This document shows positions 30,235 to 55,569 of a DNA stretch of 64,000 bases, one piece after another. Below the pieces are notes generated by a model that saw only the letters and a program-made list of their open reading frames with translations, did no database searches and was not told the DNA's origin. The first letter of the stretch is position 1. Every line of letters begins with the position of its first letter. Source of the stretch: Ligilactobacillus faecis. Its GTDB lineage: Bacteria > Bacillota > Bacilli > Lactobacillales > Lactobacillaceae. Made by a program: the position numbers and the translations under genes. The DNA is taken from positions 143,501 to 207,500 of the forward strand of contig NZ_CP123639.1 in NCBI RefSeq assembly GCF_029889745.1, given 5' to 3'.

Positions 30235-30410
30235 TAATATTAGCTTGAGCGCAAAAGCAAAAGATGACTTGAGCGCTCTAAAAGTGGGTATACACTTTCT
30301 GATATGGATGAAAAATTCCATACCAGTTTTTTTGCGCAAAAAAAAGGACATTTAATGCCCTCTCATTATACAATGAATTCACCACAAACCACGTAAAGGA
30401 GAGAATTTAA

Positions 30411-31649
30411 ATGTCCCATAACGATTGTATACTAAAACTTCTAAATATTAAAGACCCTAATCTCAAAGTTATTGATGTTATCGATAATTTAAATAATGGC
30501 ACAGAGAAATTAGTTTTGATCAAAGCTGTACTATCTTATCCTATCAGCCGTTGTCGAAATTGTGGCTTTGCCACTGTTAATAAAAATGGTTTCGCTAAAG
30601 CTCACGTACGTTTACCAAGTTTAAACGGTATACGTTATGAAATGATCCTTCATAAACAACGCTATCAATGTAAAAATTGTCGCACAACTTTCGGTGCGAC
30701 CTCTGAATTGACTAAGCCTAATCAAACTCTTTCTCGTAAACTAAAAAATCAGATCATGTTATTAGCTAGGGAAGGTTTGAACGGTGAACTTATCGCTCGC
30801 ATCTGTCATTGCTCTGCTAGTAGTGTTCGAAGAACTATTGTCGAACGGATCAAACCTCAATATCGAGTACCTGTTTTGCCCAAGAATCTTTGTTTTGATG
30901 AATTTCGTTCGATTAAAAATACAACTTCTTTTATCTGTTGTGATGCACAAACTCATAGGTTAGTTGCTAAACTCCCAGATAGACTATCTTCTACCATTAT
31001 CAATTATTTTGAAAATCGTTACTCAAAGTTTGAACGTGATCAAGTGGAATCGGTCGTCATTGATTTAAACGCTCAATACCAGCGTTTCATTCGACGACTT
31101 TTCCCGAATGCCAAGATTATTATTGATCGATTTCATATCGTTCAGCTAGCCGGACGTGCTTTAGACAGTTGTCGAATCGCTCTCACTAGGTCGCTCAATA
31201 AGCATAGTCGAGAATATAAGATCCTCAAATCACAGTGGCGTTTATTCCATAAAAAATCTGATGAGATCGACCCTAAAAATGTTGTCTATCTTAGGGGAAT
31301 CAATGAATATATGACTCAACAGAATGCGATCGACTTGATCATCAATAAATTTTCTAAATTCAAAATAGTTTATCAGACTTACCAAGATATTACCTTAGCT
31401 TTGAAGAATAAAGACATTACTACTTTGAATGAGGTTCTTGATAGTTATGAGCGCACCAATACAGAGATGGATACGACCATTCGTACTTTCCGTAAAAATC
31501 GCAGCTATCTAATAAATAGCGTAACTTCAATATATTCCAATGGTCCTTTGGAGGGTATCAATCGAAAGATCAAACTCTTAAAACGAAGTTGTTACGGTTT
31601 TGCTAATCAACAATTTTTCTTTTTACGAATTGATTGTATATTTGCGTAA
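30411..31649 (+). CDS. ISL3-family transposase
   Basis: A 412-residue transposase. It has an N-terminal zinc-binding part (CRNCG, then CKNCR near residue 86), a helix-turn-helix (LIARICHCSASSVRRTI) and a DDE core with CFDEF, IDLNAQY, IIDRFHIVQ and SNGPLEGINRKIKLLKR. AAAGGAGAG precedes the ATG. The C-terminus appears complete, so the nested insertion at 31673 falls after the stop codon and does not disable it. The presence of intact ends, duplication and gene suggests recent activity. Confidence 0.93.
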   Translation: MSHNDCILKLLNIKDPNLKVIDVIDNLNNGTEKLVLIKAVLSYPISRCRNCGFATVNKNGFAKAHVRLPSLNGIRYEMILHKQRYQCKNCRTTFGATSELTKPNQTLSRKLKNQIMLLAREGLNGELIARICHCSASSVRRTIVERIKPQYRVPVLPKNLCFDEFRSIKNTTSFICCDAQTHRLVAKLPDRLSSTIINYFENRYSKFERDQVESVVIDLNAQYQRFIRRLFPNAKIIIDRFHIVQLAGRALDSCRIALTRSLNKHSREYKILKSQWRLFHKKSDEIDPKNVVYLRGINEYMTQQNAIDLIINKFSKFKIVYQTYQDITLALKNKDITTLNEVLDSYERTNTEMDTTIRTFRKNRSYLINSVTSIYSNGPLEGINRKIKLLKRSCYGFANQQFFFLRIDCIFA

Positions 31650-31681
31650 AAAAACACTCCCCACAATTCTATTGATATGAT

Positions 31682-31740
31682 TCCCCTAGAGTGGACACGG
31701 AAATAATAAAGATTCTGTGATCACTCTAGGGGGATTTTTT
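31682..31740 (+). terminator. Hairpin at left end of IS150-type element
   Basis: CCCCTAGAGTG (from 31682) pairs with CACTCTAGGGG just before ATTTTTT and the orfA start. It can stop incoming transcription and also covers the orfA ribosome site. The same hairpin occurs at 53882-53940 in copy 2. Confidence 0.7.
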
Positions 31741-32430
31741 ATGTCTAGAAGAACTACTAAACATACACTTGAAGAAAGATACCAGGCAGTCTCCGAGTAT
31801 CTTAGTGGACAATATAGTAAGTACTTTATCTGCCGGAAATATACCATTTCTAAAAATACATTTGATAATTGGATCAGAAAATACAAAGCTGGCGGTTTAG
31901 ATGGCTTAAAAGAGTCTAGAACCTGGAAAGAATATTCAGTTGAATTAAAAACAACTGCGGTTCTAGAATATTTAGAAAATGGACGTTCACCAAAGAAAAT
32001 TTGTGATAAATACAATATTTCGAGTGTTTCGGTTTTACGTAAATGGATCAACTTGTATACTAATGGAAAAGGCTTTAAAGCTACCATTGGAGGTCGTAAT
32101 AGAATGAAACATGGACGTAAAACTACTTTTAAGGAACGGCTCGAAATAGTTCAGTATACACTTGCTAATAATAAGAATTATCACAAAGCGATCGATAAAT
32201 ATAATGTTTCTTATTCCCAAGTCTATAATTGGGTCAAAAAGTTTGAAGTAGATGGCGAAAAGGCATTATACGATAATCGTGGTAAAACAGTTAAAGATCG
32301 TGATTATAAGACTCTTTCTGAAACTGAGCGTCTCAAGCTTGAGATCCTACGTTTGAAAGAACGTAATAAATATCTAGAAGCAGAAAATATCGTTTTAAAA
32401 AAATTGGACGAACTCGAAAGGAGGAGATAA
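31741..32430 (+). CDS. IS3-family transposase OrfA (copy 1)
   Basis: A 229-residue protein with three helix-turn-helix units (KYFICRKYTISKNTFDNWIRKYKAGG; KKICDKYNISSVSVLRKWI; HKAIDKYNVSYSQVYNWVKKF) and a C-terminal leucine-zipper-like coiled coil. It binds the inverted repeats. GGGGG lies 7 bases before the ATG. It ends 27 bases past a perfect slippery heptamer A AAA AAA (32397-32403), where ribosomes can shift -1 to make the OrfAB fusion. Confidence 0.9.
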   Translation: MSRRTTKHTLEERYQAVSEYLSGQYSKYFICRKYTISKNTFDNWIRKYKAGGLDGLKESRTWKEYSVELKTTAVLEYLENGRSPKKICDKYNISSVSVLRKWINLYTNGKGFKATIGGRNRMKHGRKTTFKERLEIVQYTLANNKNYHKAIDKYNVSYSQVYNWVKKFEVDGEKALYDNRGKTVKDRDYKTLSETERLKLEILRLKERNKYLEAENIVLKKLDELERRR

Positions 32431-33311
32431 GCTTTATACCTAAAAATCTGCGTTTTAAAGCTATTCAGGAAGTTCTTAAAGAGTTTCCACAAATTGAACT
32501 CTGGATCCTTTGTGCGATCTTAAATGTATCGCGCTCAGGGTATTATCGTTATTTAACTGCTCCAAAATCACAATGTACTTTGGAAAATGAATGGTTAAGT
32601 GAGATCATAAAAAAAGAATTTCATGCTTTAAATGGAATTTACGGTTCTAGAAGAATGACTCTTCTTATCAATCGAAAGTATCAAAAACAATATAACTTCA
32701 AACGTATTCGTCGCTTAATGAGAGTCCTTGGTTTATATTCAGTAATTCGTCGCAAACGCCGAGGTTGTACTCGTTCAGAACATTTAAACTACGAAGAAAA
32801 TACTTTAGGTCGTGATTTTTCCGCTACTAGACCTAATCAAAAGTGGGTGACTGATGTCACTTATTTAGAATATGGCTTAGGACAAAAAGCTTATTTAAGT
32901 GCGATCAAAGATCTATACGATGGATCTATCATAAGTTTTGAAATTAGTAAAAGAAATGATAATCGGCTTGTCATGAAGACTTTAGAAAAAGCATTCACGC
33001 ATTTAAATGAAGCTAATCTACTTCTTCACAGTGATCGTGGATTTCAATATACTTCAAAGGAATATCTTCGGTTGACCTCAAGGCATGGTGTTACAAGAAG
33101 TATGTCTCGAGTGGGGAAATGTATCGATAACGCACCAATGGAAAGTTTTTGGAGTCATTTCAAGACAGAATGTTATTATTGGCTAAAATGTGAAACATAT
33201 GGAGAACTTGTAGAAATGATCGAAAACTATATCAAGTTCTACAATACCCAACGTTACCAAATAAAACTAAACAGCCTGACTCCAGAAGAATACCGGAATC
33301 AGGCTGCCTAG
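32403..33311 (+). CDS. IS3-family transposase OrfB, expressed by -1 frameshift (copy 1)
   Basis: The catalytic half, in the -1 frame relative to orfA. An integrase-core (rve) domain is visible with WVTDVTYLE, LLHSDRGFQYTS and DNAPMESFWSHFKTE giving the DDE triad. There is no good independent start codon near the beginning, so I begin the feature at the slip site. The first ATG inside the frame (32580) would lose the N-terminal HTH_21-like portion. The full OrfAB product spans 31741-33311. Confidence 0.88.
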   Translation: MGRTRKEEISFIPKNLRFKAIQEVLKEFPQIELWILCAILNVSRSGYYRYLTAPKSQCTLENEWLSEIIKKEFHALNGIYGSRRMTLLINRKYQKQYNFKRIRRLMRVLGLYSVIRRKRRGCTRSEHLNYEENTLGRDFSATRPNQKWVTDVTYLEYGLGQKAYLSAIKDLYDGSIISFEISKRNDNRLVMKTLEKAFTHLNEANLLLHSDRGFQYTSKEYLRLTSRHGVTRSMSRVGKCIDNAPMESFWSHFKTECYYWLKCETYGELVEMIENYIKFYNTQRYQIKLNSLTPEEYRNQAA

Positions 33312-33438
33312 AATTTTAATTATTTAGTTGTTCACTTGACGGGTCTCAGATCATATTGTAGGAAGTGTTTGTAGGAATATCCATATCAGTTGACGGATAC
33401 CCCTAAAAGTGAGCACCAAGTCATCTTTTGGTCAGATC

Positions 33439-35253
33439 TCAAACTTCAACATCGATCCCTTCAAACGGTGCCAAAGTTTTGCCATTCAATTTTGTCAATA
33501 AAGCTCGTAAATTCAACTCATCATGATACTGTTGCAATTTATCAGCGTAAAAATCATTTGGTCGTGCACTTGCATTTACTAAATAAATATATTTTTTAGT
33601 GCCTAGATAACGACCGACTGCAAAGAAATTTTCCCCAGCTAACAATGTTAATTCACCATCGACTAAAACATCAGTGGCCTTTCTTTTAGCTACTAACTGC
33701 TTCACTTTTGCCAATAATGTTTCATTTTCACGGCCCCACGGATAAAAACGGCGATTATCTGGATCGCTTTCACCAGCTAAACCAACTTCATCTCCATAAT
33801 AAATGCATGGAACACCAGGAAACATCAACATCAGCGCAAACGCAAGTTCAACTTTATGTTCGTCGCCCTGTAAAGCAGTCAAGATCCGTTTTGTATCGTG
33901 TGTCCCGATATTATTCAGCGAACTTTTGTAAAATTCTAATGGATAATTTTCGCGTAGTTGCATCAAAGTTTTGGCGATCGTTTCAACAGGTTCTTCCTCA
34001 TTCAACAAAGCAATGATAGCTTTTCTCAAAGGATAATTCATCACACCATCGAGCTCATCGCCATTAACGTAATGCCGGCGTTTGTTATACGTTATCTTAT
34101 TTGAAGCATCTTCCCAAACTTCCCCGATCAAGACCCGCTCTTTATAACGCGTCAAGTTCTTTTTGATATTTTGGATAAAACTTCCCGGAAGCTCATCAGC
34201 AACATCTAGTCGCCAACCATCAACACCGACTCGGTTCCATTTGGCTAACACACTCTCATTTTCACCATAAATAAACTTTTGAAAGCTCGGATCATTTTTA
34301 TCGACGACAGGAAGATCACTGATCCCCCACCAAGAACGATACTGATCTGGGTAGTGCTCAAATGAGAACCATGGATAATACGGGCTTTTTTGATCACGCG
34401 CTGCCCCAGCATGTTCACCATAAAGCCCTCCCGCGTTAAAGTAGCGACTATTTTTACCAACATGGGAAAAAACGCCGTCTAAGATCAACTTGATATTGGC
34501 TTGGTGAAGTTTAGTGACTAATTCACGAAAGATCTTTTCTGTTCCTAACATCGAATCAATCTTTAAATAGTCATTTGTATCATAGCGGTGATTACTCGTA
34601 GCTTCAAAGATCGGATTGAGATAAACGATCGTTACACCAAGGCGTTGCAAATAGGGGATCTTTTTGATGATCCCTTTGAGATTTCCACCATAAAAATCCC
34701 AGCGTGCGATCGAACCATCTTTTTTCCGAATATACATCGGACGATCGCTTTTTCTTCCATAAATAAAAATATTTGGTTTTTTGTTATCGATATAACCAGT
34801 TAAATTCCCATTATAAAAGCGATCGGGAAAGATCTGATAACAGATCCCATTTTGGTACCACTTAGGTGCCTTAACTTCAGTTTCATAACATGTCAGCTGG
34901 TAAGAATGACTCTCTAAAAGCTCACTTGAACTCGTCAATTGTCCAACTCCGCCTTGAGCAGCACAATAATATTGCACAAGTTCTTGCTCATTTTGCCGTG
35001 AGACCAATTTGAAGTAGTAAAAATAAAGTCCGCTCTTTTTGGGAGTATAAGTCGCGTAAAAACGACCTGGACTTTTATTTTCAAGCATGATGATCTCAGG
35101 GATCAATTTACCATCGCCATAAACATAAAGTTCTGCACTCGTGATATCAATATCATAAGCTTCCAACATAAATTCGACTGGACGCCCGACTTTGATCGCT
35201 CCAAACGGTTTTTTATGTTTTTCCTGCCATGGATCAAAGTGGATATACATCAT
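33439..35253 (-). CDS. Glycoside hydrolase family 13 (neopullulanase/alpha-amylase type)
   Basis: A 604-residue enzyme that probably trims glycogen or maltodextrin. An N-terminal carbohydrate-binding domain (residues 1-120) precedes the TIM barrel. The catalytic residues are in GWRLDVADE (Asp nucleophile), LIGEVWED (Glu) and NIGTHDTKRI (Asp). AAGGG lies 7 bases before the ATG, which overlaps the end of glgP by 20 bases. Last gene of the glg operon, matching the amy position in lactobacillar glgBCDAP-amy operons. No signal peptide is seen, so it acts inside the cell. Confidence 0.88.
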   Translation of the reverse strand: MMYIHFDPWQEKHKKPFGAIKVGRPVEFMLEAYDIDITSAELYVYGDGKLIPEIIMLENKSPGRFYATYTPKKSGLYFYYFKLVSRQNEQELVQYYCAAQGGVGQLTSSSELLESHSYQLTCYETEVKAPKWYQNGICYQIFPDRFYNGNLTGYIDNKKPNIFIYGRKSDRPMYIRKKDGSIARWDFYGGNLKGIIKKIPYLQRLGVTIVYLNPIFEATSNHRYDTNDYLKIDSMLGTEKIFRELVTKLHQANIKLILDGVFSHVGKNSRYFNAGGLYGEHAGAARDQKSPYYPWFSFEHYPDQYRSWWGISDLPVVDKNDPSFQKFIYGENESVLAKWNRVGVDGWRLDVADELPGSFIQNIKKNLTRYKERVLIGEVWEDASNKITYNKRRHYVNGDELDGVMNYPLRKAIIALLNEEEPVETIAKTLMQLRENYPLEFYKSSLNNIGTHDTKRILTALQGDEHKVELAFALMLMFPGVPCIYYGDEVGLAGESDPDNRRFYPWGRENETLLAKVKQLVAKRKATDVLVDGELTLLAGENFFAVGRYLGTKKYIYLVNASARPNDFYADKLQQYHDELNLRALLTKLNGKTLAPFEGIDVEV

Positions 35254-37666
35254 CTAAGGTCCCTTCTGTTGGCTGATCTGCTTTGATATCCCAAATTTCA
35301 GCCGCATATTTTGCAACTGTATCATCAGCCGAGAAATAACCTGCATTTGCAATATTAATCAAACATTTCTTTTGCCATGCTAATTGGTCTGCATACGTTT
35401 GCGCGACTTTTTCTTTTGTGTGGATATAAGCTTCAAAATCACGTAAGACAAAAAATTCGTCATTGACCCGAAGAAGCGAATCAAAGATCTCGTGCCCCTC
35501 AACTTCAATATTTGGGATCGTCCCATCAACAAACGCATTTAAAACACGTTGTAAGACAGGATCATTGTTATAATAATCGGCCGAATGATAACTATGATCT
35601 TTTTCATATTGTAAAACATCATCTTTTGTCAGACCAAAGATAAAGATATTATCGTCACCGACATGATCTTTGATCTCAATATTAGCCCCGTCAAGAGTGG
35701 CAACTGTCAAAGCCCCATTCAACATCAACTTCATATTTGAAGTTCCAGAGGCTTCTTTAGTCGCCGTTGAGATCTGTTCACTCACATCAGCTGCTGGAAT
35801 GATCTTTTCAGCTAAAGAGACTCCATAATTTTCAAGAAAGACGACTTTTAACTTATCTTTGATCGTTGGATCATTATTGATCAAATTGGCCACTTCGTTG
35901 ATACATTTGATGATCGACTTAGCATAATGATAACTTGGCGCAGCTTTAGCTCCAAAGATAAAGACTCTTGGGATCATCTTTTGTTCTGGATCATCTTTTA
36001 AGTCAAGATAAAGTTTGACGATCCCTAATAGATTCAACAACTGTCGTTTATAAGCATGCAGTCGCTTGATCTGAATATCAAAGATCGCATCAGGTGAAAC
36101 GACGATCCCTGTCTCTTGTTTGATAAAATCGGCTAGCTTAACTTTATTGCTACGTTTAGCTTGCCCGATCTTTTTCAAAACTTTCTTATCATCAGCATAT
36201 TTTTCAAGTTCTTTTAGCTTTTTAGTATCGAACCGCCACTTAGTCCCGATCGTTTGATCGATCACCTTTGAAAGTTCTGGATTGGCTACTTGTAACCAAC
36301 GTCTAACTGCGATCCCATTGGTCTTATTATTAAAACGTTCTGGGTAAAGTTCATAAAAATCATGTAAGACATCATCTTCCAATAGCTCTGTATGCAACTT
36401 AGCGACCCCATTGACACTATGAGAACCAATGATCGCTAAATGCGCCATCTTGACCATGCCATCTTTGATGATCCGCGTCCGCTCAATGAAATCTTGGTCT
36501 CTTTTACCAGCTAATTCTAAAGCATAGCGTCGATCGATCTCTTGAATGATCTGTAAGATCCGAGGTTGAACTTTTTCAAGCATCTCCAAAGGCCATTTTT
36601 CAAGAGCTTCAGCCATGATCGTATGATTCGTATAGCTCATCGTCTTAACAGTCTGCTCCCAAGCCACCTCCCAATCGAGGTGTTTTTCATCAAGTAAGAT
36701 CCGCATAAATTCAGCTACACACATCGCAGGATGCGTATCATTAATATGGATCGCCACATAATCGCTGATCTTTTTCAAAGGTTTTCCATACTTCTTATAG
36801 TGGCGCACGATACTTTGGATCCCAGCTGAAGTAAAGAAATACTCTTGTTTCAACCGTAAGATCCGGCCCTCATAATTTGAATCATCTGGGTAAAGAACTG
36901 ACGTCAGATCTTCTACGCGCCGACGGTCTTCGATCGTCGGATACTTGACTTCTTCGGTCGCTGGGATCTGAGCATCCCATAGACGCATCGTATTGACATG
37001 ATCGTTACGGTAACCAACGATCCCCGTATCATACGGTACAGCCTTGATCACATCAGCACCCTCATAGATCGGTTCAAGATATTTGCCGTTATCGATCAGA
37101 TGGACTTGTCCGCCCATCAAAACATCGACAGCTTTACTTTCACGAGCTACAGCCCAATTATTGCCATCAGTCAACCATTCGTTTGGTAATTCGATCTGAT
37201 AACCATCGACGAATTTTTGTTTGAAAAGTCCATACTTGTAACGGATCCCATTCCCATTTCCTGGTAACCCATCAGAAGCTAACGAATCCATGAAACATGA
37301 AGCTAAGCGTCCTAGACCTCCGTTACCTAAAGCCATATCAACTTCGGCCTCAGAGATCTTATCAAGCGAAAGCCCCATTTCTTTTAAACCTTTTTCAACG
37401 ATATCATACCAACCCATATTGAGTAAGTTGCTCTTTAAAAGGCGCCCTGGTAAAAATTCGATCGAAAAATAATAAACTTGCTTTTCATCATTTTTAACAT
37501 AATCTTTCCATGTATTACGCCAAATATCAGAGTAACCCGATTTTACAACGGAAACTAAGGTCTGATAAAGTTCGCTTGGTGCTGCATCTTTAACATCCAA
37601 TGCATATTTTTCGGCCAAACGCTTCTTGAATTCATGTACAAATTTTTCCTGTGTGATTTTTTTCAT
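35234..37666 (-). CDS. glgP: Glycogen phosphorylase
   Basis: An 810-residue GT35 phosphorylase that releases glucose-1-phosphate from glycogen ends. The pyridoxal-phosphate region EASGTSNMKLMLNGALTVATLDG with its Lys is present near residue 650. The N-terminal NGGLGRLASCFMDS signature is also intact. AGGGAGG precedes the ATG. It makes the operon both synthetic and degradative. Confidence 0.95.
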   Translation of the reverse strand: MKKITQEKFVHEFKKRLAEKYALDVKDAAPSELYQTLVSVVKSGYSDIWRNTWKDYVKNDEKQVYYFSIEFLPGRLLKSNLLNMGWYDIVEKGLKEMGLSLDKISEAEVDMALGNGGLGRLASCFMDSLASDGLPGNGNGIRYKYGLFKQKFVDGYQIELPNEWLTDGNNWAVARESKAVDVLMGGQVHLIDNGKYLEPIYEGADVIKAVPYDTGIVGYRNDHVNTMRLWDAQIPATEEVKYPTIEDRRRVEDLTSVLYPDDSNYEGRILRLKQEYFFTSAGIQSIVRHYKKYGKPLKKISDYVAIHINDTHPAMCVAEFMRILLDEKHLDWEVAWEQTVKTMSYTNHTIMAEALEKWPLEMLEKVQPRILQIIQEIDRRYALELAGKRDQDFIERTRIIKDGMVKMAHLAIIGSHSVNGVAKLHTELLEDDVLHDFYELYPERFNNKTNGIAVRRWLQVANPELSKVIDQTIGTKWRFDTKKLKELEKYADDKKVLKKIGQAKRSNKVKLADFIKQETGIVVSPDAIFDIQIKRLHAYKRQLLNLLGIVKLYLDLKDDPEQKMIPRVFIFGAKAAPSYHYAKSIIKCINEVANLINNDPTIKDKLKVVFLENYGVSLAEKIIPAADVSEQISTATKEASGTSNMKLMLNGALTVATLDGANIEIKDHVGDDNIFIFGLTKDDVLQYEKDHSYHSADYYNNDPVLQRVLNAFVDGTIPNIEVEGHEIFDSLLRVNDEFFVLRDFEAYIHTKEKVAQTYADQLAWQKKCLINIANAGYFSADDTVAKYAAEIWDIKADQPTEGTLDDVYPL

Positions 37667-37713
37667 AAGTTCCTCCCTTAATTAACACCGATAACTGAAA
37701 TTTCCCCAGTGAG

Positions 37714-44200: not shown

Positions 44201-44220
44201 CCCTTAAAGATACCTTATGC

Positions 44221-44234
44221 TGTAAGCGTTGTCA
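44221..44234. promoter_or_regulatory. cre box over small RNA promoter
   Basis: TGTAAGCGTTGTCA matches every fixed position of TGNAANCGNWNNCA. It overlaps the -35 TTGACA of the minus-strand promoter, so CcpA would be expected to repress. It also lies 78 bases upstream of the plus-strand gene at 44312. Confidence 0.7.
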
Positions 44235-44311
44235 ATATTTTTGATTTGACTACTAAAGCAGCCCTAAGCATTATATAATAAAAATAACATTTAGAAAGTG
44301 AGGTCTTTGCG

Positions 44312-44572: not shown

Positions 44573-44610
44573 AAAAGAGGCTGCTTGCTGCCCAATGTCA
44601 TTAAGTTAAG

Positions 44611-44664
44611 AGAGCTTGTATCAAATTTCAATTTAGAAATTTGATACAAGCTCTCTTTTTTGAC
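44611..44664 (+). terminator. Terminator inside left end of IS4-family element
   Basis: GAGAGCTTGTATCAAATTTC pairs perfectly with its complement around AATTTA and is followed by TTTTTT. It would stop transcription entering the element from the 44312 gene and replaces the terminator that the insertion broke. Confidence 0.88.
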
Positions 44665-44709
44665 ATCTATGACGTTAATAGAGATTATTAATGTACGGAG
44701 GTGAGCATT

Positions 44710-46017
44710 ATGAATATAGCACAACTGAAAAAGTTATTTTTAACTACCCTTGACTCGATCGACCAAGAAAAAGAAAAATATGTTGTCGATCCCAAACGTG
44801 ATTTTATACGTCAGAGAAAACTTGTTTTTAAAGACACGCTACTTTATATTCTATCAATGGGTGGCGGGACTATTCTAAGTGAATTATCACAACTAACAGG
44901 AGGTATACCGGAACTCACTGTTTCAGCTTTTACACAACAAAGATATAAAGTAAAAGCTGAGGCGTTTAAAAAATTCTTCCATCTGTTTTCCGATCGATTA
45001 TCACAAAACACTCAAAGTCAAATCAGGATCCTAGCTATCGATGGCTCTAGTATTCATATCCCAACTGATCCAACTGATAAAAGCTCTTATTTTCCATCTC
45101 CAAATGGTCGCAAAGCTTATAATTTACTTCACCTTAACGCACTCTTTGACTTAGACAAACAAATTTATACAGATGTGATCGTCCAAAAAGGTATGGATAA
45201 TGAGCGCAATGCCTTGAATAAAATGATCGCTCGTTCTAAAATCCCTAAGGCGCTCATTATTGGCGATAGAGGATATGAATCTTATAATACCTTAGCGCAC
45301 ATCCAAGAAAAAGGTTGGTCTTTCTTGATCAGAGTACGAAACAACAATGGCGTGATCAGTGGAATAGCACTTCCAGATGAACGCCAATTCGATAAACATT
45401 TCACACTAAAATTAACACGTAAACAAACTAGAGAAACTAAGGAATTATTTAGAGAACGTAATTCTTATAGATTTATACCGGCCAATGTGACCTTCGATTT
45501 TTTATCACAAAAAACCAAGAAAGCTGACCCAACTGAATTTTATTCACTTGAATTTAGAATAGTACGTTTTTCTGTATCCGAAGACAAGGATGTGACTGTA
45601 GTAACTAATCTAAATCAAAGTTCATATCCAGCTTGGAAACTAAAAAAGCTTTACCATTTACGTTGGGGGATAGAAACAGCATTCAGGACATTGAAACATA
45701 CCTTGGGATTATTGAACTTTCACGCTAAAAAAATAGTGGGGATCCTTCAAGAGATCTACGCTAAACTTATAGTGTACAATTTCACCCAAATGATCATAGA
45801 TCATGTATCACTCCAAGAAAAGGCTCGATCATATCAATATAAAGTTAATTTTACAGTCGCTGTGAGACTGTGTAGATCTTTTATTAGAGGAAAATCCCCA
45901 CCAAAACGGTTAGAATCCTATATTTCTAAAAATATTCTTCCAATCAGGAATGGTCGGCATTATAAAAGATCATCCAGCAGAAGAAAAGCATCAGGATTCA
46001 ACTACAGAATAACATAA
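44710..46017 (+). CDS. IS4-family transposase
   Basis: A 435-residue DDE transposase. IDGSSIHIP, IGDRGYESYN and the IS4 signature YHLRWGIETAFRTLKHTLGL (Y-2-R-3-E-6-K) give the catalytic triad. I use the ATG at 44710, 8 bases after GGAGG; a GTG at 44701 is too close to it. The gene is complete. A trace of a related element (inverted repeat only) occurs at 62556-62575. Confidence 0.92.
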   Translation: MNIAQLKKLFLTTLDSIDQEKEKYVVDPKRDFIRQRKLVFKDTLLYILSMGGGTILSELSQLTGGIPELTVSAFTQQRYKVKAEAFKKFFHLFSDRLSQNTQSQIRILAIDGSSIHIPTDPTDKSSYFPSPNGRKAYNLLHLNALFDLDKQIYTDVIVQKGMDNERNALNKMIARSKIPKALIIGDRGYESYNTLAHIQEKGWSFLIRVRNNNGVISGIALPDERQFDKHFTLKLTRKQTRETKELFRERNSYRFIPANVTFDFLSQKTKKADPTEFYSLEFRIVRFSVSEDKDVTVVTNLNQSSYPAWKLKKLYHLRWGIETAFRTLKHTLGLLNFHAKKIVGILQEIYAKLIVYNFTQMIIDHVSLQEKARSYQYKVNFTVAVRLCRSFIRGKSPPKRLESYISKNILPIRNGRHYKRSSSRRKASGFNYRIT

Positions 46018-46070
46018 AAGAACGTGCTGATAAAAAAATTTGATTAACTATCAGCTTATTTGTCGTGATA

Positions 46071-46119
46071 AAAAGAGATCAGATAACTACAAAATATGTT
46101 TCTGATCTCTTTTTCAATA
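46071..46119. terminator. Terminator inside right end of IS4-family element
   Basis: AAAAAGAGATCAG pairs with CTGATCTCTTTTT around an AT-rich loop. A and T runs flank it on both sides, so it can act in both directions and could stop transcription leaving the transposase gene. Confidence 0.8.
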
Positions 46120-46181
46120 TCTAATCTTTAGTACTGTAGGCTTAACTTAATGACATTGTGCTTGCTGCAGTCTCTTTTTTA

Positions 46182-47540: not shown

Positions 47541-47583
47541 CTTATGAATCCTCATTTCTTTTTTATCCTATCTGATTATACCG

Positions 47584-49619: not shown

Positions 49620-50016
49620 AATCTTCGACTATACAAAATATGGAAACATCTAAACTTTTACGATGCTTAGAAAGAAATATAGCTTTTCCTTTCTTAAGTT
49701 TATTTATGTTTTAACGCCAGTTTGACTGACCTCTATAACTCCATCCCTTTTACTATTACTGGATAACAGCGCTAGCGAGATGGGGCGATATCCACCCCAT
49801 ATTTTATCTTTCTAGTAAATATCACCAACACATCAACTTGCCTTTTTTCACGCGCTCCCCTCTATTTGATCTATTTCTATATTATAGCACGCTTCGTTCA
49901 GAATGTTTTTTTTTAAAAAAAGACTAACTGCTTAAAAAAATTCTAAATAATCGTAATTGTTATTCATTTCTATCTTTTTTTGCTACAATTAAATCAATAT
50001 TGGTAGGTGATGTTTT
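49620..50016 (-). promoter_or_regulatory. Long structured leader of cdaA
   Basis: On the minus strand a TATAAT box (near 49881) predicts a leader of about 250 bases. It contains ATGGGG...CCCCAT (49780-49800) with a nine-base loop and other paired segments. Two sequence blocks recur in the comG spacer at 336-555. I do not recognise it as a known riboswitch. The rest of the spacer holds the plus-strand promoter region for the DUF1361 gene. Confidence 0.4.
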
Positions 50017-50700
50017 ATGTCGAAAAAATTACAATGGATCGTTCGAGTCACTTTTTGGATCTATCTCCTTTACATCTACATAACGGTCTATCGTCAAGGA
50101 TCTTTCTATAGTTTTTTATTGCTCAATACTTTTCTTGGCTATCTACCGATCGAGATCGCTTTACATTTAAAAGCTACGCAATCAAAATTGATCTATTGGG
50201 GGTTATTTGTCCTTTGGTTGCTTTTTTATCCTAACGCACCTTACGTGATCACCGATCTTTTCCACTTAGCCCGAATGGATCCGTATAATCCAGCAAACGG
50301 TTTGATGAGCTTTGACTTACATATGTGGTTGAATTTCACAAATCTTGTTGCCAGTGCTTTTGGCTGTGCTTTGATGGGGATCTGGAGCTTAGAGTATGTT
50401 GCACAAACGCTTCAAAAAAGATTCCGACTTCTAGGCTGGCCTTATCGTACGCTACTAGTTGTGTTCTTAACACTAGCATCTTCGATCGGGATCTATGTTG
50501 GACGTTTTTTACGGCTTCATACGGCATATCTTTTCTTTGAACCAGATGCTGTGATCAAACAATTGCTTGAGATGTGGAATCCTCGCATGTTGATCTTTGT
50601 CACTTTCATGACGATCATTCAACTCATCATCTGGGCAGCACTTGTGATCGGACGTGAATTGATCGGCAACTACGATAAGTCAGAAAAATTACTCAAATAA
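50017..50700 (+). CDS. DUF1361 membrane protein
   Basis: A 227-residue protein with six transmembrane helices. The segment LFYPNAPYVITDLFHL is diagnostic of DUF1361 (Pfam PF07099). The function is unknown. TAGGTGATG-type ribosome site precedes the ATG. It is divergent from cdaA and was followed by a terminator that now holds an IS1182-family element. Confidence 0.82.
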   Translation: MSKKLQWIVRVTFWIYLLYIYITVYRQGSFYSFLLLNTFLGYLPIEIALHLKATQSKLIYWGLFVLWLLFYPNAPYVITDLFHLARMDPYNPANGLMSFDLHMWLNFTNLVASAFGCALMGIWSLEYVAQTLQKRFRLLGWPYRTLLVVFLTLASSIGIYVGRFLRLHTAYLFFEPDAVIKQLLEMWNPRMLIFVTFMTIIQLIIWAALVIGRELIGNYDKSEKLLK

Positions 50701-50702
50701 AA

Positions 50703-50736
50703 AAACTTTTTATATCAAAAATGATATAAAAAGTTT
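50703..50736. repeat. 34-base duplicated terminator palindrome, left copy
   Basis: A palindrome (arms AAACTTTTTATATC and GATATAAAAAGTTT) immediately before the IS1182-family element. An identical copy follows the element at 52254-52287. It represents the original intrinsic terminator, duplicated whole on insertion. Confidence 0.93.
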
Positions 50737-50820
50737 CAGAATGTAGACTAAGTCATCAGAGTATGTGCTCTGGTGACTTTTTTTGTATAATTAAAGAAAA
50801 CGATTACGGAGGTATTTGTC

Positions 50821-51435
50821 ATGCTTCGCAAGAGTGATCCCAATCTCAAACGCCGTGAATATGCTCGTACTTCTCTAGATGATTTGGTCCCAAAAGATCA
50901 TTTACTCCGTAAAATTGATCAAATTATTGATTTCTCTTTTATTTATGATCTTGTCGAAGATTCCTATTGTAAAAATAATGGCCGTCCCAGTCTTGATCCT
51001 GTATTACTCATAAAGATTCCTTTGATTCAAAATCTATTTGGTATTCGTTCTATGCGTCAAACGATCAAAGAAATTCAAGTTAATGTCGCTTATCGATGGT
51101 TTCTAGGACTGGGTTTAAATGATCCTGTTCCTCATTTCTCTACTTACGGTAAAAACTATAAAAGAAGATTTGCTGAAAATCATGTAATAGAAGCCATTTT
51201 TGCTCATATCTTGAAACTCTGCTTAGAAAATGATCTTATCGACACAACTGATATTTTTATTGATGGAACTCATTTGAAAGCTGCTGCTAACAGCCGTAAA
51301 TATACTACTGAAGTTATTGAAACTAAGTCAAAATTTATGAGTGAAGATCTCGAAAAAGAAATAAATGTAGATAGAGCTAAACATCAAAAGAAACCCTTAA
51401 AAGAAGAAAAACCTAAAAAAAAACTAGACAAGTAA
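50821..51435 (+). CDS. IS1182-family transposase, N-terminal frame
   Basis: 204 residues covering the N-terminal DUF772-like domain (PSLDPVLLIKIPLIQNLFGIRSMRQTIKEI) and the first catalytic Asp (IFIDGTHLKA). It ends shortly after a run of nine A (51415-51423) with in-frame A AAA AAA. A -1 slip there joins it to the frame ending at 52208 and gives a 462-residue product, the normal family length. This may be programmed frameshifting, polymerase slippage or a simple mutation. Confidence 0.85.
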   Translation: MLRKSDPNLKRREYARTSLDDLVPKDHLLRKIDQIIDFSFIYDLVEDSYCKNNGRPSLDPVLLIKIPLIQNLFGIRSMRQTIKEIQVNVAYRWFLGLGLNDPVPHFSTYGKNYKRRFAENHVIEAIFAHILKLCLENDLIDTTDIFIDGTHLKAAANSRKYTTEVIETKSKFMSEDLEKEINVDRAKHQKKPLKEEKPKKKLDK

Positions 51436-52208
51436 AAATATCTAAAACTGATCCTGATAGTGGATGGTTTCATAAGGGTGAACACAAACAGGTTTTTGCC
51501 TATAACGTTCAAGCTGCCTGTGATAAAAATGGGTGGCTCTTAGCTTATGTGGTCGGTGCGGGAAATATCCATGATACGCAACTTTTTCCTGAAATATTTG
51601 AAAAAGTACGGAAGTACGACCCACAATATATTATCGCTGATTCTGGCTATAAAACACCCACGATCGCACACTTTTTACTATCTCAAGGCATAATTCCCAT
51701 TCTTCCTTATAAACGCCCAAGGGGCAAAGTTGGTACGCTTAGACCCAAAGATTTTGTTTATGATGAATATTATGATTGTTATTTATGTCCTGGCGATCAA
51801 ATCTTAATGTACTCCACAACTAATCGAAGTGGTTATCGTGAATATAAAAGTGATCCTACAATCTGTGAAAAATGTCCTTTACTGCACAAATGTACACAAA
51901 GTAAAAATCATCAAAGAGTTATCGCTCGTCATGTTTGGCAAGATAGTATGGAAAAATGTGAGGATATCAGGCATCAAACTGGCTCAAAATTAAAGTATGA
52001 AGCGCGAAAGGAGACGATCGAAAGAAATTTTGGTTCGGCAAAAGAATATCACAACTTGAGATACGCCCGAGAAGTAGGAATTGATAAAATTCTAGCTCAA
52101 GTCGGGTTGATATTTGCGTGCCTAAATCTAAAAAAACTGGTAAAAATACTGGGGAAAAAACCTGTTATATTCGTATATTTCAAAGTATATAGTTATAAAA
52201 ATACATAA
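51423..52208 (+). CDS. IS1182-family transposase, C-terminal frame
   Basis: 261 residues in the -1 frame. It continues KTRQVKISKTDPDSGWFHKG and includes IIADSGYKTP (second Asp) and RKETIERNFGSAKEYH (Glu) of the DDE core, plus a Cys cluster (CEKCPLLHKCTQ). No suitable ribosome site lies at its beginning, supporting expression as a fusion. An ATG at 51549 is too late to give a full domain. Confidence 0.82.
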   Translation, partial: TRQVKISKTDPDSGWFHKGEHKQVFAYNVQAACDKNGWLLAYVVGAGNIHDTQLFPEIFEKVRKYDPQYIIADSGYKTPTIAHFLLSQGIIPILPYKRPRGKVGTLRPKDFVYDEYYDCYLCPGDQILMYSTTNRSGYREYKSDPTICEKCPLLHKCTQSKNHQRVIARHVWQDSMEKCEDIRHQTGSKLKYEARKETIERNFGSAKEYHNLRYAREVGIDKILAQVGLIFACLNLKKLVKILGKKPVIFVYFKVYSYKNT

Positions 52209-52253
52209 AAAAACAAACTCTATCCGATTTGAATAGAGTTTGTCTACGTTCTG

Positions 52254-52287
52254 AAACTTTTTATATCAAAAATGATATAAAAAGTTT
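52254..52287. terminator. Duplicated terminator palindrome, right copy
   Basis: Same 34 bases as 50703-50736, followed by a T run. It can still terminate the element's own transcript and murB from the other side, so this insertion did not destroy termination. Confidence 0.88.
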
Positions 52288-52289
52288 TT

Positions 52290-53195
52290 TTATTTGCCGT
52301 CTGTCCCGATGATCCGTACTTCAGTTTCCAATTTAACACCGAATTTTTCAAAAACGACCTGTTGAACGTGTTTGATCACGGCTAAGTAATCTGTAGCTGT
52401 TGCCGCACCAATATTTACGATAAAACCAGCATGTTTCTTAGAAACTTGTGCACCCCCGATCGTAAAACCTTGCAACCCAGAGTCATGGATCAATTTACCA
52501 GTAAAATGACCTACAGGCCGTTTAAAAACACTCCCACATGAAGGATATTCCAGCGGTTGTTTTGAAGCTCGCAAGAAATTCAACTCATCCATGCGCTCGC
52601 GAATCACTGTTTTATCCCCTTGTTTCAAGGCAAAAACAGCTTCTAACACGATATCATGTTCAGTTTGTAAACGACTGGTCCGATAACCAAACTCTAATTC
52701 TTCATTTGAATATTCTTTGATCTCACCTGTTGGCGTCAAAACTTTGACTTTAGCTAAAACATCTTTGATCTCACCATCATAGGCTCCAGCATTCATAAAA
52801 ACTGCGCCCCCGATCGAACCTGGGATCCCGGCTGCAAACTCCAACCCCGTTAGGCCATGCTGATAGGCGATCTCAGTCGTTTCGATCAAAGACGCTCCAG
52901 CCGAAGCAAAAAGCAAGTCATTTTCGACCTTGACTTCAGCTAACTTCGTCAAAATGATAACTAGACCCCTGATCCCCCCATCTTTAACGATCAAATTGCT
53001 AGCATTGCCAATGATCGTTAACGGGAGTTCATTTTCTTTTGCAAAAAAGACAAGCGCTTGTGTTTCCGCAATATTTTTAGGAAAAGCGATCAGATCTGCC
53101 GGACCACCTGTTTTAGTATTTGTATAATGTGCTAACGGTTCATCTTTTAAAATCTCGATCTGAGGTAATTCATTTAAAATCTTGTCATCAATCAT
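52290..53195 (-). CDS. murB: UDP-N-acetylenolpyruvoylglucosamine reductase
   Basis: A 301-residue FAD enzyme that makes UDP-N-acetylmuramate for peptidoglycan. FAD-binding [35 protein letters not shown] and the catalytic Ser region [11 protein letters not shown] are present; the C-terminus has [13 protein letters not shown]. It corresponds to the shorter, Gram-positive type. The gene is divergent from the exonuclease gene. Confidence 0.95.
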
Positions 53196-53316
53196 TATCT
53201 TATTTGCTTCCTTAAATTATCAATATATCTCTAATTTTAACATTTTTTACTTTGACTTGCGACTCTACTTGTTTTACGCTGAAAGTAAGTTTAATTATTT
53301 GAAAGGAAGGATCCAC

Positions 53317-53853
53317 TTGAATTTCGTTGCGATCGATTTTGAAACTGCTAACGCTAAACGAAGTAGCGCTTGTTCCCTTGCTCTTACCGTCGTTAAAAAT
53401 GATCAGATCGTCGATGAATTATATTCATTGATCGATCCCCAAATGAATTTTTCTCCTTTTAACACAAAGATCCACGGGATCACACCTGCTCAAGTAAAAA
53501 ATGCACCGACTTTTGCTGAATTATGGCCACATATCCAAAGCTTTTTTACGCCAGAACAACTGGTGATCGCGCATAATGCTCCCTTTGATTGTAGTGTCTT
53601 GAAAAAAACATTGGAAGCTCATTCTTTAGAAGCGCCAAGTTTCTTAGTTTTAGATACAGTCAAAACAAGCCGCAATTTTTATCAAGATCTACCAGATCAT
53701 AAATTAAATACTGTTTGTGCGCGTCTAGACATTGAATTGAAACATCACCATAATGCTCTAGCAGATAGTCATGCTTGTGCCCAGATCTTATTAAAACAAA
53801 TGCAGGATTTTGGACCACAACAATTACGCCCTTTTATTCGTAAATATAATTGA
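53317..53853 (+). CDS. DnaQ/PolC-type 3'-5' exonuclease
   Basis: A 178-residue DEDDh exonuclease. Exo I is AIDFET, Exo II HNAPFD, and Exo III HHNALADSHACAQ with the catalytic His and Asp. Likely trims or proofreads DNA as a stand-alone epsilon-like protein. I use the TTG at 53317 (GAAAGGAAGG about 6-8 bases upstream), which starts right at the domain; upstream in-frame codons lie in non-coding AT-rich sequence. Confidence 0.85.
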   Translation: MNFVAIDFETANAKRSSACSLALTVVKNDQIVDELYSLIDPQMNFSPFNTKIHGITPAQVKNAPTFAELWPHIQSFFTPEQLVIAHNAPFDCSVLKKTLEAHSLEAPSFLVLDTVKTSRNFYQDLPDHKLNTVCARLDIELKHHHNALADSHACAQILLKQMQDFGPQQLRPFIRKYN

Positions 53854-53940
53854 TAAAAAAGAGTCTAACAAGTGATATGATTCCCCTAGAGTGGACACGG
53901 AAATAATAAAGATTCTGTGATCACTCTAGGGGGATTTTTT

Positions 53941-54630
53941 ATGTCTAGAAGAACTACTAAACATACACTTGAAGAAAGATACCAGGCAGTCTCCGAGTAT
54001 CTTAGTGGACAATATAGTAAGTACTTTATCTGCCGGAAATATACCATTTCTAAAAATACATTTGATAATTGGATCAGAAAATACAAAGCTGGCGGTTTAG
54101 ATGGCTTAAAAGAGTCTAGAACCTGGAAAGAATATTCAGTTGAATTAAAAACAACTGCGGTTCTAGAATATTTAGAAAATGGACGTTCACCAAAGAAAAT
54201 TTGTGATAAATACAATATTTCGAGTGTTTCGGTTTTACGTAAATGGATCAACTTGTATACTAATGGAAAAGGCTTTAAAGCTACCATTGGAGGTCGTAAT
54301 AGAATGAAACATGGACGTAAAACTACTTTTAAGGAACGGCTCGAAATAGTTCAGTATACACTTGCTAATAATAAGAATTATCACAAAGCGATCGATAAAT
54401 ATAATGTTTCTTATTCCCAAGTCTATAATTGGGTCAAAAAGTTTGAAGTAGATGGCGAAAAGGCATTATACGATAATCGTGGTAAAACAGTTAAAGATCG
54501 TGATTATAAGACTCTTTCTGAAACTGAGCGTCTCAAGCTTGAGATCCTACGTTTGAAAGAACGTAATAAATATCTAGAAGCAGAAAATATCGTTTTAAAA
54601 AAATTGGACGAACTCGAAAGGAGGAGATAA
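53941..54630 (+). CDS. IS3-family transposase OrfA (copy 2)
   Basis: 229 residues, identical to the protein at 31741-32430: helix-turn-helix repeats and a terminal coiled coil. The slippery A AAA AAA is at 54597-54603. The gene is intact. Confidence 0.92.
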   Translation: MSRRTTKHTLEERYQAVSEYLSGQYSKYFICRKYTISKNTFDNWIRKYKAGGLDGLKESRTWKEYSVELKTTAVLEYLENGRSPKKICDKYNISSVSVLRKWINLYTNGKGFKATIGGRNRMKHGRKTTFKERLEIVQYTLANNKNYHKAIDKYNVSYSQVYNWVKKFEVDGEKALYDNRGKTVKDRDYKTLSETERLKLEILRLKERNKYLEAENIVLKKLDELERRR

Positions 54631-55511
54631 GCTTTATACCTAAAAATCTGCGTTTTAAAGCTATTCAGGAAGTTCTTAAAGAGTTTCCACAAATTGAACT
54701 CTGGATCCTTTGTGCGATCTTAAATGTATCGCGCTCAGGGTATTATCGTTATTTAACTGCTCCAAAATCACAATGTACTTTGGAAAATGAATGGTTAAGT
54801 GAGATCATAAAAAAAGAATTTCATGCTTTAAATGGAATTTACGGTTCTAGAAGAATGACTCTTCTTATCAATCGAAAGTATCAAAAACAATATAACTTCA
54901 AACGTATTCGTCGCTTAATGAGAGTCCTTGGTTTATATTCAGTAATTCGTCGCAAACGCCGAGGTTGTACTCGTTCAGAACATTTAAACTACGAAGAAAA
55001 TACTTTAGGTCGTGATTTTTCCGCTACTAGACCTAATCAAAAGTGGGTGACTGATGTCACTTATTTAGAATATGGCTTAGGACAAAAAGCTTATTTAAGT
55101 GCGATCAAAGATCTATACGATGGATCTATCATAAGTTTTGAAATTAGTAAAAGAAATGATAATCGGCTTGTCATGAAGACTTTAGAAAAAGCATTCACGC
55201 ATTTAAATGAAGCTAATCTACTTCTTCACAGTGATCGTGGATTTCAATATACTTCAAAGGAATATCTTCGGTTGACCTCAAGGCATGGTGTTACAAGAAG
55301 TATGTCTCGAGTGGGGAAATGTATCGATAACGCACCAATGGAAAGTTTTTGGAGTCATTTCAAGACAGAATGTTATTATTGGCTAAAATGTGAAACATAT
55401 GGAGAACTTGTAGAAATGATCGAAAACTATATCAAGTTCTACAATACCCAACGTTACCAAATAAAACTAAACAGCCTGACTCCAGAAGAATACCGGAATC
55501 AGGCTGCCTAG
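54603..55511 (+). CDS. IS3-family transposase OrfB by -1 frameshift (copy 2)
   Basis: Identical to 32403-33311. It holds the rve integrase core with the DDE triad and is expressed as an OrfAB fusion through the slip at 54597-54603. Identity over both frames argues that the two copies parted very recently. Confidence 0.9.
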   Translation: MGRTRKEEISFIPKNLRFKAIQEVLKEFPQIELWILCAILNVSRSGYYRYLTAPKSQCTLENEWLSEIIKKEFHALNGIYGSRRMTLLINRKYQKQYNFKRIRRLMRVLGLYSVIRRKRRGCTRSEHLNYEENTLGRDFSATRPNQKWVTDVTYLEYGLGQKAYLSAIKDLYDGSIISFEISKRNDNRLVMKTLEKAFTHLNEANLLLHSDRGFQYTSKEYLRLTSRHGVTRSMSRVGKCIDNAPMESFWSHFKTECYYWLKCETYGELVEMIENYIKFYNTQRYQIKLNSLTPEEYRNQAA

Positions 55512-55569
55512 AATTTTAATTATTTAGTTGTTCACTTGACGGGTCTCAGATCAAAGAGACTCTTTTTTA

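What the first reader, a model, noticed from the sequence alone, without database searches (positions are those of the whole stretch)
30259..55568. Five IS elements of four families all sit in the loops of intrinsic terminators
For each complete element I could rejoin the two flanks after removing one target duplication, and each time a rho-independent terminator stem appears with the insertion at its apex: ISL3 (30286), IS150-type inside ISL3 (31673), IS4 (44592), IS1182 (50737) and IS150-type (53873). Unrelated transposases use different catalytic set-ups, so a common cause may be the target itself: an extruded hairpin, single-stranded DNA at the loop, or selection that tolerates only insertions at gene ends. 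Insertion at palindromes is known for some families (IS1182 and IS-REP cases), but concordance across four families in one window is striking.
Basis: partly seen in the sequence, partly recalled or inferred. Interest (0 to 1): 0.88.

Follow-up and report, generated by a model that had tools for sequence, protein, structure and literature searches.

The report
Jumping genes that land in hairpins
Several unrelated bacterial jumping genes in this genome insert precisely into DNA hairpin sites, mostly those that end genes, and one of them copies the whole hairpin when it lands, which suggests that it reads DNA shape rather than sequence.

Summary
The five insertions are real. Four (ISL3, two IS150-type, IS4) lie at a hairpin apex. 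The IS1182 does not: it sits at the foot, with the whole 34-bp stem-loop duplicated on both sides.

Genome-wide, three of the four families prefer hairpins. By a fixed criterion met by 4-6% of control positions, IS150 scores 16/20 copies, IS4 7/8 and IS1182 16/17. ISL3 does not: of ten copies with an 8-bp duplication only the window copy is apical; the others have A/T-rich duplications, several in a terminator T-tract.

The strongest result is the IS1182 subgroup. All 54 duplications measured (17 own, 37 from other bacteria) are stem-loops of 17-35 bp, centred on the hairpin axis, without helical phase. A fixed-stagger cut would not give this. Joining at the two 5' feet of an extruded hairpin would, a route that Wan et al. 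2017 (PMC5678879) drew as hypothetical. IS150 and IS4 relatives in other hosts also hit palindrome centres, so the preference travels with the element. Selection for gene ends may add to it but does not explain the register.

Palindrome-targeting IS are known; exact whole-hairpin duplication appears to be a new variant.

The parts
30259..30271 (.). 5' arm (AAAAGATGACTTG) of the host terminator-like hairpin split by ISL3; 3' arm at 33417-33429
   Evidence: read; flanks
30278..30285 (.). ISL3 8-bp target duplication CTAAAAGT, left copy (right copy 33403-33410)
30286..33402 (+). ISL3-family element carrying a nested IS150-type element (other copies without it are 1431-1433 bp); transposase 30411-31649
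   Evidence: NCBIfam ISL3 272.7 bits, cut-off 180; 11 copies in the genome
31655..31669 (.). 5' half of the ISL3's own 3' hairpin (CACTCCCCACAATTC..., 29 nt without the insert), hit by IS150 in 5 of 11 ISL3 copies
31670..31672 (.). IS150-type 3-bp duplication TAT, left copy (right copy 33354-33356)
31673..33353 (+). IS3/IS150-type element, 1681 bp, nested in ISL3
   Evidence: 20 copies; Pfam rve and HTH_21; 100% match of the second ORF here (176080-176808 of contig 1)
44582..44591 (.). IS4 10-bp duplication TGCTTGCTGC spanning the loop, left copy (right copy 46159-46168)
44592..46158 (+). IS4-family element (terminal CAATGTCATTAAGTTAAG), transposase 44701-46017
   Evidence: NCBIfam IS4 186.6 bits, cut-off 115; 9 copies
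44610..44655 (+). intrinsic-terminator-like hairpin inside the IS4 left end (a second hairpin near the right end, 46070-46114, by folding)
50703..50736 (.). IS1182 34-bp duplication = whole stem-loop, left copy (right copy 52254-52287)
   Evidence: axis offset 0.0
50737..52253 (+). IS1182-family element, 1517 bp, ends CAGAA...TTCTG; transposase in two frames 50821-51435 and 51549-52208
   Evidence: NCBIfam IS1182; 17 copies
50750..50779 (+). intrinsic-terminator-like hairpin at the IS1182 left end; right-end counterpart 52245-52211 on the minus strand
53870..53872 (.). IS150-type 3-bp duplication AAG in a terminator-like loop, left copy (right copy 55554-55556)
53873..55553 (+). second IS3/IS150-type element, 1681 bp
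   Evidence: NCBIfam IS3 255.7 bits, cut-off 160, for the second ORF

Best explanation
Three of the four families have transposases that choose palindromes, in practice nearly always terminator-like hairpins, each with its own geometry. IS150-type elements join 3 bp apart at the centre of the palindrome. The IS4-type element joins 10-11 bp apart, symmetric about the same centre. The short IS1182 branch joins its 3' ends to the two 5' feet of the stem-loop (most likely an extruded hairpin or cruciform, where the feet lie together whatever the stem length), so gap repair copies the whole stem-loop to both sides. ISL3 is different: it enters A/T-rich 8-mers, several in a terminator T-tract, and its apical copy here is probably chance. 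The compact genome then keeps such insertions because they lie between genes and because the elements carry terminator-like hairpins of their own. Shown: register, symmetry, host-independence. Inferred: extruded structure, direct recognition by transposase, terminator replacement.
For: Apex criterion IS150 16/20, IS4 7/8, IS1182 16/17 against 4-6% in controls. All 54 IS1182 duplications used: all different in sequence, length 17-35 bp, best axis offset 0.0 in 54, inner pair positions 1-7 paired in 98-100%, no helical phase (Rayleigh p 0.35-0.43). Random window intergenic segments of the own-copy lengths have all six outer pairs in 325/94486; observed 15/17 own copies. Same rule in other hosts: 8 of 8 fetched and 29 of the 31 loci with a detected duplication, out of 80. 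IS150 relatives elsewhere 8 of the 11 given. IS4 relatives elsewhere: 10-bp duplication within 2 nt of a palindrome centre in 5 of 5 tested, 4 distinct sites; 4 of the 5 pass the full criterion. Five of 11 ISL3 copies carry an IS150 in one 29-nt hairpin, duplication centres 1-2 nt from its axis, five different combinations of position and orientation. Left and right flanks of one IS150 copy pair better than swapped flanks, 0 of 20000 permutations. A T-tract lies near the target on at least one strand in 45 of 45 own IS150, IS4 and IS1182 sites, against 3348/5340 intergenic positions. In 9 of 12 same-genus loci the neighbouring convergent gene is found near the murB 3' end with no room for the element, several with a hairpin between.
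Against: No experiment; extrusion is inferred. The IS1182 stem often continues outside the duplication (median 2.5 pairs, up to 13), so the joint is not simply the outermost foot; it prefers an A/T step just outside the G+C-rich stem, and 52 of 54 sites have a T-tract at a foot, so sequence may matter as well as shape. Four of 20 IS150 copies, 1 of 8 IS4 copies, 3 of 11 foreign IS150 relatives and 1 of 5 foreign IS4 relatives fail the criterion. Two IS150 copies lack a 3-4 bp duplication. Of 80 IS1182 loci 49 gave no duplication; among 12 loci with recognisable ends (11 of these plus L180), 4 have no perfect abutting palindrome at either end (L180, L187, L243, L244), against a control rate of 280/3600 for at least 7 of 8 pairs. 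The ISL3 copy at an apex is unexplained except as chance. Recalled, not checked: other IS (IS1549, IS1634) are reported to make long variable duplications, so variable length alone does not prove hairpin recognition.
Confidence: 0.72

Rival explanations
1. Selection alone: insertions happen everywhere but survive only just behind genes, where terminators lie.
For: The targets are terminator-like in nearly all cases (T-tract 45 of 45 own sites); elements carry their own terminator-like hairpins, which would make such insertions mild.
Against: Selection does not centre a duplication within 0-2.5 nt of an axis; the 3'-end zone control passes in only 95/1740; ISL3 in the same genome lies beside hairpins, not at apices; IS150 copies nested in ISL3 share one hairpin. 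A few foreign targets have no T-tract on either strand (L265, L277/L280, L195, L228).
Confidence: 0.05
2. Duplex symmetry, not extruded structure: a symmetric transposase dimer prefers two-fold symmetric B-DNA.
For: IS150 and IS4 duplications have near-fixed length (3-4 bp in 18 of 20; 10-11 bp in 7 of 8, the eighth 10 bp if its end is moved by one base) centred on the dyad; the IS4 duplications listed mostly have G or C at their ends, as reported for Tn5 (passage of PMC1525189).
Against: For IS1182 the two joints are 17-35 bp apart with no helical phase, hard to reconcile with a rigid complex on B-DNA.
Confidence: 0.4
3. Single-stranded hairpins at replication forks or transcription bubbles are the substrate.
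For: Terminators are transcribed and their hairpins would form readily in single strands; not excluded by any result here.
Against: Duplication of a full stem-loop needs joining on both strands; IS150 entered the same ISL3 hairpin in both orientations. Strand bias with replication was not tested.
Confidence: 0.2
4. The IS1182 palindromes belong to the element or arise after insertion by repair.
For: Palindromes abut the ends in every copy with a true duplication.
Against: Each of the 54 copies has a different palindrome; five loci without a matching duplication have perfect palindromes at both ends (L182, L199, L200, L218, L230), different ones where read, as expected of recombination between copies; several same-genus genomes have a hairpin at the corresponding place without the element.
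Confidence: 0.03

Closest known systems
IS1272 and TnSha1 (IS1182 family; PMC5678879 and PMC4923244)
   Same: IS1182-family transposase; targets hairpins or terminators with no common sequence.
   Different: IS1272 replaces (deletes) the stem-loop and leaves no duplication; this branch duplicates the whole stem-loop, the 'pathway b' that PMC5678879 draws, in the parts I read, without an example.
IS1397 / ISKpn1 and ISPsy8 (IS3 family) in REP palindromes (PMC1525189)
   Same: IS3 family; for ISPsy8 a 3-bp duplication at the symmetry axis of a palindrome; for IS1397 and ISKpn1 the transposase is held responsible for the choice.
   Different: Those target one repeated REP sequence; here own-genome targets are mostly unrelated terminator-like hairpins.
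ISRm22 (IS4 family) in REP sequences (PMC1525189) and IS1675 of Lactococcus (IS4)
   Same: IS4 family at palindromes; IS1675-type elements share the terminal sequence CAATGTCATTAAGTTAAG and the 10-bp duplication.
   Different: Own-genome targets all have a T-tract (8 of 8); the three distinct Lactococcus targets have a TATAC centre and one of them has no T-tract.
Other IS1182-family members, such as ISPse1 of Paracoccus (PMC3281130)
   Same: Same family by name.
   Different: ISPse1 appears in a table row there with what seems to be a 4-bp duplication (passage only, column headings not seen).
IS1549 / IS1634 (recalled, not looked up)
   Same: Reported to leave long duplications of variable length.
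   Different: I recall no link of those lengths to a hairpin at the target; not tested here.

Membership tests
IS1182 family | IS1182-type transposase (NCBIfam NF033551) | tested here: inconclusive
   Both half-frames hit it, 197.7 and 191.9 bits, each under the whole-protein cut-off of 270 because the gene is split; together they cover positions 6-216 and 288-487 of 488
IS1182 family | DUF772 plus DDE_Tnp_1 domains | tested here: met
IS1272-type inverted-repeat replacement | No duplication; target stem-loop deleted | tested here: not met
   17 of 17 own copies have 21-34 bp duplications that are the stem-loop
IS3 family (IS150-type) | rve/HTH_21 transposase, TG...CA ends, 3-4 bp duplication | tested here: met
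   NCBIfam IS3 255.7 over 160; ends TGATATG...CAGATCA; 3-4 bp duplication in 18 of 20, 2 bp in L045, none in L038. The IS150 subgroup label is recalled, not tested
IS4 family | IS4 transposase and about 10-11 bp duplication | tested here: met
   186.6 over 115; 10-11 bp in 7 of the 8 copies with both ends, the eighth (L065, the window copy) 10 bp only if its end is moved by one base
ISL3 family | ISL3 transposase and 8-bp duplication | tested here: met
   272.7 over 180; 8 bp in 10 of 11 copies
REP-targeting IS | Insertion into one repeated palindromic sequence family | tested here: not met
   Own IS1182 duplications are 17 different sequences; own IS150 and IS4 targets differ by eye, apart from the ISL3 hairpin hit five times and similar CACTTCC...GGAAGTG hairpins (L034, L045)

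The most novel reading that the evidence does not exclude
The transposase of the short IS1182 branch recognises an extruded stem-loop (four-way junction) itself and joins the element to its two 5' feet, so its target duplication is a copy of a whole secondary structure whose length is set by the target and not by the enzyme; together with the IS1272-like replacement mode, one transposase family would use both polarities of the same structure-directed reaction.
Probability: 0.55. Interest if true: 0.78.

Novelty: new variant of a known kind. Interest (0 to 1): 0.62.

Why it matters
DDE transposases normally cut with a near-fixed stagger (established knowledge, recalled). A branch whose duplication length follows the hairpin at the target would be a natural readout of DNA secondary structure in living cells, and would help to test from insertion maps the old question whether cruciforms form in chromosomes. 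It also suggests why compact genomes can carry many IS copies with little harm: separate families converge on terminator-like sites and bring terminator-like hairpins of their own.

Tried and rejected
Single common cause for all four families: rejected, because registers differ and ISL3 fails the test. Flank-swap test: clear for IS150 (0/20000), weaker for IS4 (53/20000), for the flanks outside the IS1182 duplications (156/20000) and for the two small IS3 groups together (164/20000), not significant for ISL3 (3785/20000; 6 copies given, L019 without duplication among them). For the 17 long IS1182-like elements it gave 1320/20000 with 22-nt flanks and 68/20000 with 12-nt flanks, so stem-loop replacement in this genome remains a lead, not a result. 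Long variable direct repeats for those elements were sought and not found, apart from a 10-bp match abutting both ends of L135 and an 11-bp match 152 nt away in L143. Close IS1182 or IS4 relatives in about 300 genomes of the family: 2 of 301 (E<=1e-30) and 1 of 301 (E<=1e-60), the own genome included; most of the genomes listed there are drafts in many contigs. No solved structure matched by sequence. Near-identical DNA of the ISL3/IS150 stretch in plasmids: none. First attempts to locate ends failed and were redone. Sampling: of 1727 plasmid records with an IS1182 match 40 were listed and 7 fetched; of 54 with an IS150-type match 25 were listed and 6 fetched; of 295 with an IS4 match (150 in the stricter repeat) 30 each were listed and 7 fetched; of 19 foreign murB loci 12 were used. 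Rows dropped before counts: IS4 copy L066 (right end not found); L180 and L212 from the 54 duplications (non-palindromic 11- and 9-bp matches whose ends are not CAG...CTG); of nine foreign IS150 loci, four without resolvable ends (L256, L257, L258, L261); of seven foreign IS4 loci, L269 and L279 without an exact duplication. For IS4 L065 the left end was moved by one base. Judged by eye: ISL3 nested copies and distances to terminators, loci L178, L187, L206; by eye L243 has a palindrome near its left end that the script did not score.
Full report
WHAT IS THERE. The window lies in a 2.38-Mb genome (G000), unnamed; from relatives probably a member of the Lactobacillaceae (inferred). It holds five complete elements in the stretch given: ISL3 30286-33402 with an IS150-type element nested at 31673-33353, IS4 44592-46158, IS1182 50737-52253 and a second IS150-type element 53873-55553 (families by NCBIfam). 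Four of the five insertions are at a hairpin apex. The IS1182 is not: its 34-bp duplication, 50703-50736 and 52254-52287, is the complete stem-loop, and the element stands at its foot.

ALL COPIES. The genome has 11 copies of this ISL3, 20 of the IS150 type, 9 of IS4 and 17 of IS1182. I removed one duplication from each and folded 64 bases around its centre. The criterion was a stem of at least 10 pairs, centre within 2.5 nt of the apex and a fold of -9 kcal/mol or lower. Controls in the window passed in 243 of 5558 intergenic positions, 95 of 1740 positions within 90 nt behind a stop codon, and 94 of 1500 coding positions. IS150 passed in 16 of 20, IS4 in 7 of 8 (a ninth copy lacks an end), IS1182 in 16 of 17 (the miss, L085, has a 9-pair stem) (tails). 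The failures are L036, L038, L039, L048, L059 and L085. A T-tract lies within 34 nt on at least one strand in 45 of these 45 sites, against 3348 of 5340 intergenic positions in this A+T-rich genome, so the targets are terminator-like.

ISL3 IS DIFFERENT. Ten of 11 copies have an 8-bp duplication. By eye, the window copy is the only one at an apex; four lie in or directly after a terminator T-tract (L013, L014, L016, L017), two lie within about 20 nt of a terminator (L012, L015), and the other three (L010, L011, L018) are in A/T-rich DNA. One search was given only six ISL3 copies and passed one, L019, which has no duplication. With a 5-6% background, one apical copy in ten is compatible with chance. 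ISL3 is thus an internal control: an element often found behind terminators, but not at apices.

A NATURAL EXPERIMENT. Five of the 11 ISL3 copies carry an IS150-type element, all five in the same 29-nt hairpin behind the ISL3 transposase gene, with duplications at positions 12-14 (twice), 13-15 (once) and 16-18 (twice) around the axis at 15. The five differ in position or in orientation relative to ISL3 (strands), so they are separate events. For IS150, the left and right flanks of the same copy pair with each other far better than swapped flanks (0 of 20000 permutations).

THE IS1182 RULE. In the own genome 17 of 17 duplications, 21 to 34 bp long and all different, are symmetric stem-loops; in 15 all six outer pairs form, and in L078 and L079 the outermost base does not pair. 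To see whether this is the host or the enzyme I took relatives elsewhere, at 54-59% identity over the first frame. Eight of eight fetched, in Enterococcus, Acetoanaerobium, Staphylococcus, Lactococcus, Macrococcoides, Cytobacillus, Sutcliffiella and another genome of the family, have palindromic duplications of 19-35 bp. A scan of named genomes gave 80 loci. A search that asks only for a direct repeat of at least 9 bp next to inverted ends, and not for a palindrome, found one in 31; 29 of these are stem-loops of 17-35 bp and two are chance matches. Twenty of the 49 loci without one are cut off by a contig end or have little flank. Twelve loci with recognisable ends (11 of the 49 plus L180) were examined further: eight have a perfect palindrome abutting at least one end, in L182, L199, L200, L218 and L230 at both ends (control 280 of 3600), as if copies in different hairpins had recombined; L180, L187, L243 and L244 do not. 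Over all 54 duplications the best axis coincides with the centre in 54, inner pair positions 1 to 7 are paired in 98-100%, pairing falls off outside (50-85%), and lengths cover 17-35 bp without helical phase (Rayleigh p 0.35-0.43). A T-tract is at a foot in 52 of 54; L195 and L228 have none.

MECHANISM. A DDE transposase acting on duplex DNA normally leaves a duplication of near-constant length (recalled; IS1549 and IS1634 are recalled exceptions). Here the length is set by the target hairpin. The simplest model is that the two joined phosphates are neighbours in space and not along the helix, as at the base of an extruded hairpin or cruciform. Joining at the 5' feet and gap repair then copies the stem-loop. 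Wan et al. 2017 (PMC5678879; abstract, passages, results section 24 and part 1 of 2 of the discussion read) drew this as a hypothetical 'pathway b' beside the stem-loop replacement that they found for IS1272; they also note that Siguier et al. had reported palindromic targets for some IS1182 members without detailed data. Furi et al. 2016 (PMC4923244, passages read) report hairpin targeting with deletion. The joint lies in the A/T step just outside the G+C-rich stem, and the stem can continue beyond it (median 2.5 pairs), so some sequence preference is present. Extrusion itself is inferred.

IS150 AND IS4 ELSEWHERE. Eleven IS150-type relatives with resolved ends, in the same genus, another genus of the family, Ligilactobacillus salivarius, Priestia, Lysinibacillus, Exiguobacterium (two) and Niallia, were tested: 8 meet the criterion, L273 misses by half a base, L270 and L275 do not. 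IS4 relatives (Lactococcus IS1675 and one in Lactobacillus amylolyticus) have the same terminal 18 bases and a 10-bp duplication within 2 nt of a palindrome centre in 5 of 5 tested, four distinct sites; 4 of 5 pass the full criterion, L278 having a 9-pair stem. Two others, L269 and L279, had no exact duplication. Most of these targets have a T-tract too; L265 and L277/L280 have none on either strand. So the preference is carried by the element, and a T-tract is not always needed. Because these duplications have near-constant length, recognition of symmetric duplex DNA explains them as well as an extruded hairpin does. Precedents are the IS3-family ISPsy8 (3-bp duplication at the axis of a REP hairpin), IS1397/ISKpn1 and the IS4-family ISRm22 (PMC1525189, abstract and passages).

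WHY IT IS TOLERATED. The elements carry terminator-like hairpins at one or both ends (IS4 44610-44655 and 46070-46114; IS1182 50750-50779 and 52245-52211; IS150 left-end hairpin 53879-53936 and right end 55511-55467; pattern matches and folds only), so a broken host terminator may be replaced at once. This is inference; transcription was not measured. In 9 of 12 same-genus loci examined (of 19 foreign loci returned) the convergent neighbour gene lies close to the murB 3' end with no room for the element, and several have a hairpin between.

NOVELTY. Hairpin- and palindrome-targeting IS are known. Ten literature searches of the open library were made; no listed title or abstract beginning reports whole-hairpin duplication, and neither do the parts that I read of five papers (PMC5678879 apart from its hypothetical pathway, PMC4923244, PMC1525189, PMC3281130, PMC9484755). 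Other papers were seen only as listings. Subscription reviews and ISfinder were not available. I therefore call it a new variant of a known kind.

Noticed in passing
G000 loci L129-L135 (7 copies) and L136-L145 (10 copies): Two groups of 1.8-kb IS1182-family elements (transposases of 551 and 574 aa in the copies examined) whose flanks in several copies are inverted complements of each other (best: L144, 11 pairs) and mostly without a duplication (L135 has a 10-bp match), as in IS1272 stem-loop replacement. Statistically weak here.
   Followed up: partly
L115-L117 and L118-L119: Two further IS3-family elements. By eye their insertions lie in terminator-like loops in 3 of 3 and 1 of 2 copies; the strict criterion passed 1 of 3 and 0 of 2, with offsets of 3.5-5 nt in the failing loop cases.
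   Followed up: partly
L058 and L014 (G000 2334516-2336078 and 2336107-2337481): One terminator seems to have been hit twice: an IS4 copy in its loop and an ISL3 copy in its T-tract.
   Followed up: no
L022, L025-L028: A second ISL3-family element (453-aa frame in L025) whose right end abuts A/T tracts in several copies, in L028 directly before a hairpin. Left ends were not resolved.
   Followed up: no
window 51390-51440 and the other IS1182 copies: The IS1182 transposase is split into two frames near a run of nine A; the 10 copies listed show the same first frame and all 17 the same second frame, which suggests programmed frameshifting or slippage.
   Followed up: no
L059 (G000 1463923-1465485) and L053: An IS4 copy inserted beside or in a hairpin at the left end of a degenerate relative of the IS150-type element, perhaps another case of one element's hairpin serving as landing site for another.
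   Followed up: partly
window 62770-62844 and 63569-63961: Two pieces of an ISL3-type transposase near the window end, the second inside a reported open frame of 2041 aa.
   Followed up: no
G077 loci L255, L260, L263, L265: IS150-type relatives in another genus sit in similar palindromes (GGGCTCCAG...CTGGAGCCC), possibly a REP-like repeat family of that genome.
   Followed up: no
L212: An IS1182-type element flanked by a perfect inverted repeat of at least 22 bp outside its ends on a short MAG contig; possibly an assembly artefact.
   Followed up: no
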